38,319 nt of DNA, taken from the NCBI RefSeq assembly GCF_013155395.1, contig NZ_JABJWC010000034.1, positions 1-38,319 of the forward strand, written 5' to 3'. The notes beneath the pieces are model-generated. The model ran no database searches. It was not told the origin of the DNA and saw only the letters and a list, made by a program, of their open reading frames with translations. Below, piece by piece: positions 25,310 to 30,587 of the stretch. This stretch comes from Komagataeibacter melomenusus (GTDB lineage: Bacteria > Pseudomonadota > Alphaproteobacteria > Acetobacterales > Acetobacteraceae). The translations under genes were made by a program, and so were the position numbers. Numbering within the stretch: position 1 is the stretch's first letter; each line of letters opens with the position of its first letter.

Positions 25310-25768
25310 TCAGGCCGAAAGCCGCGCGCGCACCACGGGCGAGGCGCTGGCCGGGTTCAGTGCCGCGCCAAACTGCTCCTTCAGCGCTGCCATGACCTTG
25401 CCCATGTCCTTCATGGAGGTGGCATCGGTGCGCTCGATCGCTTCGCGCACGGCGGCCTCGAGAGTGGCGTCATCAAGGTCGGGGGGCAGGTAGTCGCGGA
25501 TGATCGCGATTTCGGCCTCTTCCTTTTCGGCCAGTTCGGGGCGGCCACCCTTGAGGTACATCGCTGCCGATTCCGTGCGGGACTTGATCATGCCGCGCAG
25601 CATGGCAATCACCGCCTCATCGCTCACCTGGTCCTCGCCCTTGGCGCGGCCTGCGATATCGACATCCTTCAGCTTTGCCGTAATCATGCGGATGGTGCCG
25701 ACCTTTTCGCTCTGGCCAGCCTTCATGGCGGTTTTCAGGTCATCCATGAAACGTGCGCGCAGGGACAT
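25310..25768 (-). CDS. yqeY: GatB/YqeY domain-containing protein
   Basis: A 152-residue YqeY protein, related to the tRNA-binding tail domain of the GatB amidotransferase subunit. The family features are MITAKLKDVDIAGR near residue 30, MIKSRTESAAMYLKGGRPEL, EIAIIRDYLPP, and a C-terminal DMGKVMAALKEQ helix. Its exact role is unknown. The start is ATG 25768 with AGGAG nine bases upstream; a longer reading runs into the regulatory region and lacks support. It is the first gene of yqeY-dnaG-rpoD and is divergent from carA, a frequent alphaproteobacterial arrangement. Confidence 0.93.
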   Translation of the reverse strand: MSLRARFMDDLKTAMKAGQSEKVGTIRMITAKLKDVDIAGRAKGEDQVSDEAVIAMLRGMIKSRTESAAMYLKGGRPELAEKEEAEIAIIRDYLPPDLDDATLEAAVREAIERTDATSMKDMGKVMAALKEQFGAALNPASASPVVRARLSA

Positions 25769-25819
25769 GACTGTCAACTCCTCTGCCCGGCGGGAGGGCA
25801 CGATGCCCCCTTGCATGCC

Positions 25820-25834
25820 GGGAATAATTTTCCC
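25820..25834. promoter_or_regulatory. Palindrome 1 (GGGAA-N5-TTCCC) in the yqeY/carA intergenic region
   Basis: GGGAA at 25820-25824 and TTCCC at 25830-25834 form a perfect inverted repeat with a TAATT spacer. The same arms and spacing recur 38 bp downstream. Between the two lies GGTATAAGG (25843-25851), a possible -10 region readable on both strands (TATAAG plus, TATACC minus). The arrangement suggests paired binding sites for a dimeric repressor of the divergent genes. No binding evidence is available. Confidence 0.5.
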
Positions 25835-25856
25835 AATGTCTCGGTATAAGGCCATG

Positions 25857-25873
25857 TGGGAATTTTCTTCCCA
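25857..25873. promoter_or_regulatory. Palindrome 2 (TGGGAA-N5-TTCCCA) in the yqeY/carA intergenic region
   Basis: TGGGAA at 25857-25862 and TTCCCA at 25868-25873 form a perfect inverted repeat with a TTTTC spacer. It is the second copy of the motif at 25820, and both copies continue into a TTCCCAAT direct repeat. It lies about 50 bases before the carA start, where a bound protein could block transcription. Confidence 0.5.
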
Positions 25874-25921
25874 ATTACCAGAGACGCTGTTAGGCAATAC
25901 TCCCGGAAGGGACATCATCCA

Positions 25922-27319
25922 ATGCCGATGACGATAGAAAACATTATCGAACGCCTTGGCGGGGCCGAACAGGCCGCGAAGCTGACCGGCGTCAGCACCG
26001 AGGCCATTCGCAAATGGCGGCAGGCCCGCGCCATTCCGCCCAAGCACTGGACCACCGTGCTGCGGGCGACCGGCCTGTCACTGTCCGACCTGCAACCCGC
26101 CACAGAATCCGACCGACCGGAGCCCCCGATGAGCACGTCAAACCCGATCGCACCGGCCGAGAGGCCCAAAGCTGCGACAGCCGCCCTGATCCTGGCCGAT
26201 GGCACCATCCTGTGGGGGCGCGGATTCGGCGCGTACAGCACGGAGCGCGCGCTGGGCGAGATCTGCTTTTCCACCGGCATGACCGGCTACCAGGAAACGC
26301 TGACCGACCCATCCTTTGCTGGCCAGATCATCACCTTCACCTTCCCCCATATCGGCAATACCGGCACCACGCCGGAGGATGATGAAGCCACCGCCATCAA
26401 CGCCCGCGCGCTGGTGGTGAAGGAAGACCTGACCGCACCCGCCAACTGGCGCGCGACCGAATCGCTCGATACGTGGCTGAAAGCCCAGAACGTACCGGGC
26501 ATCTGCGGCATCGACACCCGTGCCATCACGCGCCGCATCCGCGAGGGCGGGCCGCAGACGGCCATCGTGGCCTACCCGGCGGACGGCAAGTTCGACCTGC
26601 CTGCCCTGCTGGCACAGGCCCGCGCCTGGCCGGGGCTGGAGGGCATGGACCTGGCGCGTGAAGTAACCTGCGCCAAGCCTTACGGGTGGAGCGAGGGCGT
26701 GTGGCAGTGGCCGCACGGCACCGCCCCCCTGCCCGCGAAGCGCCGCAAGGTGGTGGCCGTTGATTACGGGGCCAAGCGCAACATCCTGCGCTGCCTGGCC
26801 ACGGCTGGCTGTGACGTGACCGTGGTGCCTGCCACCACCACGGCGGAGGAAATCCTCGCCCTCGACCCCGCGGGCGTGTTCCTGTCCAACGGGCCGGGCG
26901 ACCCGGCGGCAACCGCCAGCTATGCCGTGCCCGCCATCAGGGGCGTGCTCGCGGCGGGCAAGCCGGTATTTGGCATCTGCCTGGGCCACCAGCTTCTGGC
27001 CCTCGCCCTCGGCGCCAAGACCTACAAGCTGGCGCGTGGCCACCGGGGGGCGAACCAGCCGGTCAAGGACCTCGAAACCGGCAAGGTGGAGATCACCAGC
27101 CAGAACCACGGCTTTGCGGTCGATGACACGTCGCTGCCCGCCGACGTGCGCGCCACCCATACCAGCCTGTTCGATGGCTCGAACGAGGGCATCGCCACCA
27201 GCCGCTACCCCGCATTCTCGGTGCAGTACCACCCCGAGGCCAGCCCCGGCCCGTCAGACAGCCACTACCTGTTCCGCCGTTTTGTCGACCTGATCGACAC
27301 CACAACCAAGACCGCGTGA
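25922..27319 (+). CDS. carA: Carbamoyl-phosphate synthase small subunit with an N-terminal helix-turn-helix-like domain
   Basis: A 465-residue glutaminase subunit of carbamoyl-phosphate synthase; it releases ammonia from glutamine for CarB, feeding arginine and pyrimidine synthesis. The CarA part starts near residue 85 ([20 protein letters not shown]). Its class I amidotransferase domain has Cys353 in FGICLGHQ, and His437 and Glu439 in VQYHPEA. Ordinary CarA is about 380-400 residues. The extra 70 N-terminal residues contain [18 protein letters not shown] followed by [18 protein letters not shown], which reads like a small YdaS/Cro-type helix-turn-helix. I recall a similar small domain being described next to carbamoyl-phosphate synthase but cannot verify it. 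ATG 25922 has GGAAGGG about 10 bases upstream. An internal ATG (26129, residue 70) has its own Shine-Dalgarno. carB follows 13 bp later. Confidence 0.93.
26119..26131 (+). promoter_or_regulatory. Internal ribosome binding site and ATG within carA
   Basis: GGAG at 26119-26122 is followed by six bases and an in-frame ATG at 26129. Initiation here would give a 396-residue protein that starts MSTSNPIAP and has the length of ordinary CarA without the helix-turn-helix domain. The site sits exactly at the domain boundary. Confidence 0.45.
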
Positions 27320-27332
27320 AAGCCGACCCGAC

Positions 27333-30300
27333 ATGCCCAAACGGACAGACATCAGCTCCATCCTGATTATTGGCGCCGGCCCGATCGTGATCGGCCAGGC
27401 GTGCGAATTCGACTATTCCGGCGCACAGGCCTGCAAGGCCCTGAAGGAAGAGGGCTACCGCGTCATTCTGGTCAACTCCAACCCAGCCACGATCATGACC
27501 GATCCGGGGCTGGCGGATGCGACCTATATCGAGCCGATCACCCCGGAATTCGTCGAGCGCATCATCCTGCGTGAAAAGCCCGATGCGGTCCTGCCCACCA
27601 TGGGCGGGCAGACGGCGCTGAACACCGCCATGGCGCTCGACAAGTCCGGCTTCCTCAAGAAGCACAATGTCGAGCTGATCGGCGCCAATGCCGAGGTGAT
27701 CGACCGCGCCGAGGACCGCCAGAAATTCCGCGAGGCGATGGACGAGATCGGCATCGAGAGCCCGCGCAGCCTGATCGCCCATACGCTGGATGAAGCACGC
27801 GCAGCCCTTGCCACCGTGGGCCTGCCTTCGGTCATCCGCCCGTCCTTCACCATGGGCGGCTCGGGCGGCGGCATTGCCTATAACAGGGAGGAATTCGACC
27901 GCATCGTCACCTCCGGGCTTGATGCCTCCCCCACCACGGAAGTCCTGATCGAGGAATCCGTGCTGGGCTGGAAGGAGTACGAGATGGAGGTCGTGCGCGA
28001 CACGGCTGACAACTGCATCATCATCTGCTCCATCGAGAACATCGACCCGATGGGCGTGCATACCGGCGATTCCATCACCGTGGCCCCTGCCCTGACCCTG
28101 ACCGACAAGGAATACCAGCGCCTGCGCGACATGTCGCTGGCCTGCCTGCGCAAGATCGGGGTGGAGACCGGTGGCTCGAACGTGCAGTTCGGCATCAACC
28201 CCGCCGATGGCCGCGTCGTGGTGATCGAGATGAACCCGCGCGTGTCGCGCTCCTCCGCACTTGCCTCCAAGGCAACCGGCTTCCCCATCGCCAAGATCGC
28301 AGCCAAGCTGGCGGTGGGCTACACGCTTGATGAACTGACCAACGACATTACCGGCAGCACGCCGGCCTCGTTTGAACCCACGATCGATTACGTGGTGGTC
28401 AAGATCCCGCGCTTTACGTTCGAGAAGTTCCCCGGCACGCCTGCGCTGCTGTCCACGAGCATGAAGTCGGTTGGCGAGGCGATGGCCATTGGCCGCTCCT
28501 TCCCCGAGGCGATGCAGAAGGGCCTGCGCTCGATGGAAATCGGGCTGGCGGGCCTGGACCCGGTCGAGGCACCGGGCGATGGCGGGCCGGATGCCTTCCG
28601 CGCAGCGCTTTCGCAGCCGCGCCCCGAGCGCATCCTCATGGCGGCACAGGCCCTGCGCGCGGGGCTGAGCGTGGAAGACATTCACGATGCCTGCCGCTTC
28701 GAGCCGTGGTTCCTGCGCGAGCTGGCCAAGATCGTGGCCGCCGAGCACGCGGTGGTGCGTGACGGCCTGCCCGAGGATGCCGACAGCCTGCGCGCACTCA
28801 AGGCCATGGGCTTCTCCGACATCCAGCTTGCCCGCCTGTCCGGCACGCAGGCCGATGAGATCGCGAAGCTGCGCGAAGGCCGGGGTGTGACCCCTGTGTA
28901 CAAGCGCATCGACACCTGTGCCGGTGAGTTCGCCTCCCCCACGCCCTACATGTATTCCACCTATGAAGGCGGGTACGGCGTGCCGGAATGCGAAAGCAGG
29001 CCGACCGACCGCAAGAAGATCGTCATCCTTGGTGGTGGGCCGAACCGTATCGGCCAGGGCATCGAGTTCGACTATTGCTGCGTCCATGCCGCCTATGCCC
29101 TGCGCGAGGCCGGTTTCGAGACGATCATGGTCAACTGCAACCCCGAGACCGTCTCGACCGACTATGACACGTCGGACCGCCTGTATTTCGAGCCGCTGAC
29201 CGCCGAGGACGTGATCGCCCTGATCCGCCGCGAGCAGGAGAACGGCACGGTTCTGGGCTGCATCGTGCAGTATGGCGGGCAGACCCCGCTCAAGCTGTCA
29301 CGCGCGCTCGAGGCCGCGGGCATTCCCCTGCTCGGCACCCCGGCCGATGCGATCGACCGCGCGGAGGACCGCGAGCGCTTCCAGACCATGCTGCACAAGC
29401 TTGGCCTGCGCCAGCCCGCCAACGGCATTGCCCGCAGCCCGGCGGAAGCCGAGGCCGTGGCCGAGAAGATCGGCTACCCCGTCGTGGTCCGCCCGTCCTA
29501 CGTGCTGGGCGGGCGCGCGATGGAGATCGTGCATGACCGCGCCAGCCTGCAGCGCTACATGCGCGTAGCACTCCAGCTTGCGGGCGCTGAAGTGGCCAAT
29601 GGCCCGGTGCTGATCGACCACTACCTGAACGATGCGATCGAAGCCGACGTGGACTGCATTGCCGATGGCGGGGAAGTCTATGTGGCAGGCGTGATGGAAC
29701 ACATCGAGGAGGCGGGCATCCATTCGGGTGACAGCGCCTGCTCGCTGCCGCCCTACACGCTCTCGCCCGCCATCGTGACCGAACTCAAGGCCCAGACCGA
29801 GGCCATGGCGCGTGAACTCGGCATCGTGGGGCTGATGAACGTGCAGTACGCGATCAAGGGGCAGGAGATCTTCGTGCTCGAGGTCAATCCCCGCGCCTCG
29901 CGCACCGTGCCCTTCGTGGCCAAGGCGACCGGCGTGCCGGTGGCCAAGATCGGCGCGCGGGTCATGGCGGGGGCGAAGCTGGCCGAGTTCCGGCTCGATG
30001 ACCGCGCCGTCGCCCCGCATGTGGCGGTGAAGGAGGCGGTCTTCCCCTTCAACCGCTTCCCCGACGTGGATACGATCCTTGGCCCCGAGATGCGCTCGAC
30101 CGGCGAGGTCATGGGGCTTGATGCCTCGTTCGAGCGTGCCTTCGCCAAGTCGCAGCTTGCAGCGGGCGTGAAGCTGCCGCTTTCGGGCACGGTGTTCCTG
30201 TCGGTGCGCGATAGCGACAAGGCGGCCGCCAAGTCGATCGGCCGCCTGCTGGTCGAGATGGGCTTCAAGGTCGTGGCCACGCGCGGCACCGCCAAATACC

Positions 30301-30587
30301 TGCGTGAGGCCGGCATTGCGGTGGACGTGATCAACAAGGTGCTCGAAGGCCGCCCCAACTGTGTCGATGCCATCCGCTCGGGCGAGATCCAGATGGTCAT
30401 CAACACCGCCCAGGGTGCCCAGGCGGTCAGCGACAGCTTTGACATCCGCCGCTCCGCACTCACCCACGGCATTCCGCACTACACCACCATTGCGGGGGCG
30501 CGGGCCGCGACGCATGCCATTTCGGCCATGCGCGAGGGGGTTCTTGAAGTCGCGCCGCTTCAATCCTATTTTAAGGGATCATTCTGA
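27333..30587 (+). CDS. carB: Carbamoyl-phosphate synthase large subunit
   Basis: A 1084-residue synthetase making carbamoyl phosphate from bicarbonate, ammonia and two ATP. It has the duplicated ATP-grasp plan. The first half starts [20 protein letters not shown] and includes [13 protein letters not shown] near residue 175 and [20 protein letters not shown] near 300. The second half starts [20 protein letters not shown] near 565 and includes [20 protein letters not shown]. The C-terminal allosteric MGS-like domain runs from about 945 ([19 protein letters not shown]). All expected landmarks are in place. It is co-directional with carA and almost certainly co-transcribed. Confidence 0.98.

What the first reader, a model, noticed from the sequence alone, without database searches (positions are those of the whole stretch)
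25922..26140. CarA carries an in-frame N-terminal helix-turn-helix-like domain
The open frame from ATG 25922 adds about 70 residues before the normal CarA start, without a stop. Residues 5-45 have the spacing of a small YdaS/Cro-like DNA-binding fold ([14 protein letters not shown], then TEAIRKWRQ). CarA normally has no DNA-binding part. A carbamoyl-phosphate synthase subunit that binds DNA would link arginine/pyrimidine precursor supply directly to transcription. I recall a small domain annotated next to carbamoyl-phosphate synthase genes, so the fusion may be catalogued, but I know of no functional description.
Basis: partly seen in the sequence, partly recalled or inferred. Interest (0 to 1): 0.75.

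Follow-up and report, generated by a model that had tools for sequence, protein, structure and literature searches.

The report
Enzyme subunit with built-in DNA-binding domain
In acetic acid bacteria and their relatives, the small subunit of the enzyme that starts arginine and pyrimidine synthesis carries a phage-repressor-like DNA-binding domain, and matching sites in its own promoter suggest that the enzyme switches its own gene down.

Summary
CarA begins, in frame, with a ~58-residue helix-turn-helix domain (25922), joined to the enzyme by a disordered linker. The domain matches NCBIfam carph-isopro (68 bits, cut-off 38) and folds like phage Cro. 236 of 249 same-family genomes have the domain; 160 of 160 family loci read across the junction are fused.

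Two palindromes, GGGAA-N5-TTCCC, stand 38 bp apart upstream (25820-25834, 25858-25872). All 168 fused loci tested have at least one such core site. The sites are missing where carA lost the domain (two separate losses) and at 28 of 28 outgroup carA genes. A strict form occurs 17 times in ~71 Mb, 15 at carA. Changes of recognition-helix residue 34 go with changes of the operator's outer base pair. In 109 of 168 loci a site fills the 17-bp spacer between -35 and -10; in the window's group it overlaps a likely -35.

Best reading: HTH-CarA is an autogenous repressor of carAB, as PutA is of put. Most fusions keep an internal ATG with a strong ribosome site, so a short enzyme-only CarA is probably made too. 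Direct binding and the metabolic signal are untested.

The parts
25820..25834 (.). distal palindrome GGGAATAATTTTCCC (candidate operator)
   Evidence: conserved upstream of carA in relatives
25858..25872 (.). proximal palindrome GGGAATTTTCTTCCC (candidate operator), 38 bp from the distal one
   Evidence: conserved upstream of carA in relatives
25868..25873 (+). candidate -35 (TTCCCA), inside the proximal operator
   Evidence: TA 17 nt after TTCCCA in 17 of 30 dissimilar loci of this arrangement, 0-5 of 30 at other spacings; inference for the window
25891..25896 (+). candidate -10 (TAGGCA), 17 nt after TTCCCA
   Evidence: inference
25905..25912 (+). purine-rich ribosome-site candidate GGAAGGGA before ATG 25922
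   Evidence: read from the sequence; inference
25934..26095 (+). carph-isopro / Cro-like helix-turn-helix domain, CarA residues 5-58
25997..26026 (+). recognition helix, residues 26-35, with Q34 whose changes go with the operator's outer base pair
26096..26176 (+). linker, residues 59-85, low model confidence
26119..26131 (+). internal start: GGAG 26119-26122 and ATG 26129-26131 (Met70), candidate start of a short CarA without the HTH domain
26177..27319 (+). CarA enzyme part (CPSase small chain and class I glutamine amidotransferase); C353, H437, E439 invariant in 50 aligned fusions
27333..30587 (+). carB, next gene on the same strand, probably in the same operon
   Evidence: frame; named from its sequence by recall

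Best explanation
The carA gene makes a carbamoyl-phosphate synthase small subunit with a Cro-type helix-turn-helix domain on a flexible linker. Two such domains bind each palindrome GGGAA-N5-TTCCC in the carAB promoter. Because the proximal site fills the 17-bp gap between -35 and -10 (most genera) or overlaps the likely -35 (the window's group), binding keeps RNA polymerase out, so the enzyme subunit limits its own synthesis. Shown by comparison: the domain, its conservation, the paired sites, their place at carA, their loss together with the domain, and the covariation of residue 34 with the outer base pair. Inferred: physical binding, dimer on each site, repression rather than activation, a second shorter product from the internal ATG, and any coupling to ornithine, UMP or enzyme assembly.
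For: (1) Cro-like fold: best PDB matches are Xfaso 1 Cro, N15 Cro (also bound to operator DNA) and P22 Cro (Foldseek E 0.03-0.2, TMq 0.57-0.71; profile hit to 2hin E 0.006). (2) Sites: 58 of 68 fused loci have a perfect site within 200 nt, 62 of 68 with at most one mismatch, against 0.05 and 1.2 of 68 in shuffles; scored on the core GGAA-N5-TTCC, 168 of 168 fused loci have at least one site with at most one mismatch and 159 have two or more; 162 of 167 distinct loci have a perfect core. (3) Specificity: TGGGAAN5TTCCCA occurs 17 times in 18 genomes of ~71 Mb, 15 at carA. (4) Co-loss: carA of G071 and G157 (one genus) and of G249 has neither domain nor site within 450 nt, two separate places on the CarA tree; 28 of 28 outgroup carA loci have no site with at most one mismatch. 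(5) Covariation: Q34 loci have outer base G in 470 of 512 half-sites, S34 loci C in 12 of 12; S34, T34 and A34 sit in three places on the tree. (6) Position: TTG at -35 in 93-99% and TA-rich -10 exactly flanking the site in 90 dissimilar loci; the same ttGnnn / Tatnnn motifs are reported for Gluconobacter oxydans promoters (PMC5756330, passages).
Against: No binding, transcript or protein data. The window itself does not show the clean -35/operator/-10 order; its promoter is inferred. Covariation is not perfect: 42 of 512 Q34 half-sites do not have G, several Q34 proteins with Gly at 36 have C..G sites, T34 loci are mixed (3 C, 3 G), H34 keeps G, and A34 (L068) has only imperfect cores. P values (5e-12 half-sites, 6e-8 loci) ignore relatedness; the S34 loci are one clade. 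G019, G020 and G031 have no strict site anywhere. The reversed-pattern control found 2 sites in G031. G157 still has a free-standing 82-aa match to the domain elsewhere.
Confidence: 0.82

Rival explanations
1. A separate, free-standing repressor binds the palindromes, and the HTH domain on CarA is an evolutionary leftover or serves something else.
For: Free-standing relatives of the domain exist in some family genomes (88-92 aa frames; 82 aa in G157), and sites alone do not name their binder.
Against: Sites disappear with the CarA domain and the outer base pair follows residue 34 of the CarA domain. Most family genomes have no second over-cut-off copy among the listed matches.
Confidence: 0.08
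2. HTH-CarA binds these sites but activates carAB, or mainly controls the divergent yqeY-like gene (start near 25768).
For: The sites lie between two divergent genes in the window; some HTH proteins that bind in the spacer activate (MerR type; recalled).
Against: The spacer is 17 bp, already optimal, whereas MerR-type activation uses longer spacers (recalled); the sites keep a fixed register to carA promoter elements in 90 dissimilar loci.
Confidence: 0.07
3. Only the short CarA from Met70 is made; the extension is not translated or is not a functional protein domain.
For: Internal Met codons in the linker have strong ribosome sites: median -5.8 kcal/mol for 65 Met codons against -1.7 for 1992 other linker codons and -3.1 for the 81 domain starts.
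Against: Mostly synonymous changes in the domain, invariant recognition-helix residues in 55 sequences, covariation with DNA, and 22 of 81 dissimilar fusions without any linker Met.
Confidence: 0.03

Closest known systems
PutA, trifunctional (proline utilisation A)
   Same: A metabolic enzyme with a small N-terminal DNA-binding domain that represses its own operon (PMC5293562, passages).
   Different: PutA uses a ribbon-helix-helix domain and switches with proline and membrane binding; here the domain is Cro-like, the enzyme part makes carbamoyl phosphate, and the switch signal is unknown.
Phage Cro proteins (Xfaso 1, N15, P22)
   Same: Same all-helical fold and paired operator logic; correlated recognition helices and half-sites are the subject of Hall et al. 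2005, which I saw only as cited in PMC4997575.
   Different: Here the domain is fused to an enzyme and has essentially one target, its own promoter; sequence identity to the solved Cro proteins is 26-33%.
NCBIfam NF046037 carph-isopro domain
   Same: The extension is a member (68.4 bits, cut-off 38).
   Different: The family entry seen here is a name and a profile only; operators, self-regulation and two start sites are not in it as shown. Outside the family the domain sits on other proteins.
PepA control of E. coli carAB
   Same: A trigger enzyme represses the carAB promoter (PMC6245113, passages).
   Different: PepA is a separate aminopeptidase, acts with PurR, RutR and IHF by wrapping DNA; here the repressor would be CarA itself.

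Membership tests
NF046037 carph-isopro domain | score above the curated cut-off of 38 bits | tested here: met
   68.4 bits alone, 63.1 in the whole protein, residues 5-58 over all 54 profile positions
Pfam P22_Cro (PF14549) | score above gathering cut-off 30.2 | tested here: inconclusive
   30.4 for the extension alone, 25.9 in the whole protein
Pfam YdaS_toxin (PF15943) | score above gathering cut-off 30 | tested here: not met
   29.8 alone, 28.6 in the whole protein
Cro-type phage repressor fold | five-helix Cro fold | tested here: met
   model with five helices; nine best PDB matches are Cro proteins or a Cro hybrid, none with E below 0.001
Cro-type phage repressor | dimer on a palindromic operator | tested here: inconclusive
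   palindromes and covariation found; no dimer or binding test
Carbamoyl-phosphate synthase small subunit (TIGR01368) | score above cut-off 307.35 and catalytic Cys/His/Glu | tested here: met
   449.4 bits; C353, H437, E439 invariant in 50 aligned fusions; their catalytic role is recalled
Autogenous trigger enzyme (PutA-like) | enzyme carries its own DNA-binding domain | tested here: met
Autogenous trigger enzyme (PutA-like) | binds and represses its own promoter | not testable with these tools
   only sites, their position and covariation
Autogenous trigger enzyme (PutA-like) | DNA binding switched by a pathway metabolite | not testable with these tools
   no data

The most novel reading that the evidence does not exclude
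One gene makes two proteins with different jobs: a long HTH-CarA, translated in most genera from a leaderless or nearly leaderless message whose promoter spacer is the operator itself, and a short CarA from the old internal start. The share of long form in the synthase, and the assembly state of the synthase (in E. coli ornithine favours tetramers and UMP single heterodimers), would decide whether two HTH domains can pair on the operator, so the whole enzyme would read arginine and pyrimidine status and set its own transcription without any separate regulator.
Probability: 0.25. Interest if true: 0.88.

Novelty: new variant of a known kind. Interest (0 to 1): 0.78.

Why it matters
How carbamoyl phosphate synthesis is controlled outside E. 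coli and a few other models is poorly known to me; in E. coli several separate proteins do it. Here a whole bacterial family, including industrial acetic acid and cellulose producers, appears to have built the repressor into the enzyme. The operator is defined to the base pair, has essentially one genomic target, and comes with natural specificity variants, so the claim can be tested in a few weeks and would add a clean second case beside PutA of an enzyme that reads its own promoter. It also gives a natural data set for a protein-DNA recognition code in Cro-type domains.

Tried and rejected
Wider regulon: in the window's genome GGGAAN5TTCCC occurs at 7 places (control pattern 3); the 5 outside carA were read by eye and none resembled a paired promoter site, but gene starts around them were not mapped. 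Known RNA element in the leader: no Rfam match in 25700-26200. Sigma-70 consensus scan of 25740-25960: no site found; the acetobacterial promoter is laxer. Same trick outside the family: no pair of like 5+5 palindromes that looked convincing upstream of 27 loci where the domain heads other proteins; L085 gave four GC-rich pairs that I judged chance, the start could not be placed well in several, and L092 had no motif. One search read minus-strand loci in the wrong orientation for its upstream and protein columns; only its CarA search, which covers both strands, is used. My regular expression missed 6 fused loci (154 of 164 loci given); one search shows these 6 are fused and that the other 4 lie outside the family.

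Literature: searches for 'carph-isopro', carbamoyl phosphate synthase with helix-turn-helix, fusion and autoregulation, with carA and Acetobacteraceae, and 'carbamoyl phosphate synthase small' with 'HTH domain' gave no paper. One search listed 4 papers, none of which holds the carbamoyl phosphate term. The library holds open-licence PMC papers only.

Full report
What is there. The frame from ATG 25922 is open through CarA to 27319. Residues 5-58 match the NCBIfam carph-isopro domain (68.4 bits, cut-off 38) and, more weakly, Pfam P22_Cro and YdaS. The rest is an ordinary CarA (449 bits to TIGR01368) with the presumed catalytic residues C353, H437 and E439 invariant in 50 aligned fusions. Close relatives in the named collection are Komagataeibacter species with 97-98% identical domains, so the window is most likely Komagataeibacter.

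Conservation. 238 of 249 same-family genomes have a domain match and 236 have one over the cut-off; this counts the domain anywhere in the genome. Of 164 loci looked at across the junction, 160 are from the family and all 160 are fused in frame (several come from the same genomes, and the special cases below were not in that set). Special cases: in G129 (L102) the domain frame and the CarA frame differ next to a run of C and G, possibly an assembly error, and in G075 (L104) the CarA frame holds a TAG. In 13 Komagataeibacter loci the domain codons differ by 2-9 synonymous and 1-2 nonsynonymous changes; five pairwise estimates gave dN 0.008-0.23 and dS 0.19-0.76. Elsewhere in the class the domain is over the cut-off in 35 of 190 genomes, three of them same-family. 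Of 30 loci given to a CarA search, only the two same-family ones hold CarA; the others carry the domain on other proteins, many looking like mitofilin-type membrane proteins (named by recall).

Fold. The domain alone is modelled with pLDDT 81 (about 88-93 over residues 11-50) and five helices. The nine best PDB matches are Xfaso 1 Cro, N15 Cro (free and on operator DNA), a Cro hybrid and P22 Cro; E-values are 0.03-0.2, so the match is suggestive in score but consistent in kind. In the full-length model residues 58-77 are mostly below pLDDT 50, so the domain looks tethered, not packed.

The sites. Upstream of carA lie GGGAATAATTTTCCC (25820-25834) and GGGAATTTTCTTCCC (25858-25872), 38 bp apart. 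The pattern is expected 0.01 times in the window and occurs twice. In the window's 3.6-Mb genome it occurs at 7 places, two of them here. In 68 fused loci, 58 have a perfect site within 200 nt, 39 have two, and 62 have one with at most one mismatch; shuffled upstream regions gave 0.05 and 1.2 loci. Six of the 68 had none by this rule: L059, L060, L064, L067, L068 and L071. Reading them showed the same site with another outer base pair. Scored on GGAA-N5-TTCC with the outer pair left free, 168 of 168 loci have at least one site with at most one mismatch and 159 have two or more; 162 of 167 distinct loci have a perfect core. No shuffle was run for this looser rule; I estimate about 7% per locus by chance for one mismatch. 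Site spacing in loci with two perfect cores is 38 in 46 cases and 36-44 in 97 of 105. In the named set 79 of 80 loci have a perfect core.

Specificity and co-loss. The strict form TGGGAAN5TTCCCA occurs 17 times in 18 genomes of about 71 Mb, 15 of them beside carA; the reversed control occurs twice, both in G031; G019, G020 and G031 have no strict site. Three genomes with full-length carA but no extension (G071, G157, G249) have no site with at most one mismatch within 450 nt of the CarA core, and none of the strict form anywhere. On a tree of 82 CarA proteins they lie in two places, each next to fused relatives. G157 keeps an 82-aa free-standing match to the domain elsewhere. Of 28 carA loci from other families of the class, none has a site and none showed the extension by eye. 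Other family genomes without the domain match had carA cut by a contig end or not found.

Covariation. Where residue 34, in the recognition helix, is Gln, the outer base of perfect-core half-sites is G in 470 of 512; where it is Ser it is C in 12 of 12; for Thr 3 of 6 are C; for His 2 of 2 are G. By locus, 142 of 153 Gln loci and 1 of 9 others have a G..C site (Fisher p 6e-8, not corrected for relatedness). The six Ser loci form one supported clade (99/95), the Thr loci another, and the single Ala locus (L068, sites TGGAG..TTCCG and CGGAG..TTCCG) a third place, although parts of the backbone are unresolved. Among Gln loci, those with Arg at 36 have a G..C site in 105 of 107 and the rest in 37 of 46, and several Gln proteins with Gly at 36 have C..G sites, so residue 34 is not the only determinant. 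An independent binder would not be expected to follow CarA residues.

Promoter geometry. In 109 of 168 loci a site starts 26-36 nt before the domain's start codon. In 90 dissimilar ones the flanks are TTG at 7 to 5 nt before the site (T 0.99, T 0.93, G 0.94) and TA-rich right after it (T 0.62, A 0.92, T 0.56), which places a 17-bp tGGGAAN5TTCCCa exactly between -35 and -10. Measured Gluconobacter oxydans promoters have the same lax ttGnnn and Tatnnn motifs, and leaderless messages occur there (PMC5756330, passages; carA is not named in its text). This geometry puts the transcript start at or near the domain's ATG. In 30 dissimilar loci of the other arrangement, which includes the window, TA stands 17 nt after the site's TTCCCA in 17, against 0-5 at other spacings, so the site's right half probably is the -35. 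For the window this gives TTCCCA 25868-25873 and TAGGCA 25891-25896; the consensus scanner found no promoter there.

Two products. In 81 dissimilar fusions, 59 keep at least one Met in the linker. These 65 Met codons have a stronger ribosome site upstream (median -5.8 kcal/mol) than 1992 other linker codons (-1.7) or the domain starts (-3.1). The old CarA start seems to be kept in use in most, while 22 of 81 have none and must use the fused form. In the window the internal start is GGAG 26119-26122 with ATG 26129.

Mechanism and limits. The simplest reading is negative feedback on enzyme amount: HTH-CarA occupies its own promoter. In E. coli the synthase forms tetramers with ornithine and heterodimers with UMP (PMC6245113, passages), so a link from assembly state to pairing of the domains is possible, but its sign and existence are guesses. 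PutA shows that such an enzyme-repressor works (PMC5293562, passages). I found no paper on this fusion in searches of an open-licence library.

Noticed in passing
L097 (G323:C26), L091 (G392), L088 (G374): Outside the family the same domain stands in frame before what look like a SerA-type dehydrogenase, a crotonyl-CoA reductase-like protein and an NAD(P)HX-epimerase-like protein, again just before a plausible enzyme start (names by recall).
   Followed up: partly
L008, L019, L028, L077, L081, L087 and others: In many other alphaproteobacteria the domain heads a mitofilin-like membrane protein, with a different recognition helix (TTVQGWK); why such a protein would carry it is unexplained.
   Followed up: partly
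L102 (G129) and L104 (G075): Domain and CarA lie in different frames in L102 near a C/G run, and L104 has a TAG in CarA; both keep two sites.
   Followed up: no
L359 (G157:C1:2074574-2074711): A genome whose carA lost the domain keeps a free-standing 82-aa frame with the domain over the cut-off.
   Followed up: no
window 25310-25921: The site-bearing gap lies between carA and a divergent yqeY-like gene (start near 25768), which could share the control.
   Followed up: no
G080:C18:265183-265347: A second over-cut-off copy of the domain in a 364-aa frame, in a genome that also has the CarA fusion.
   Followed up: no
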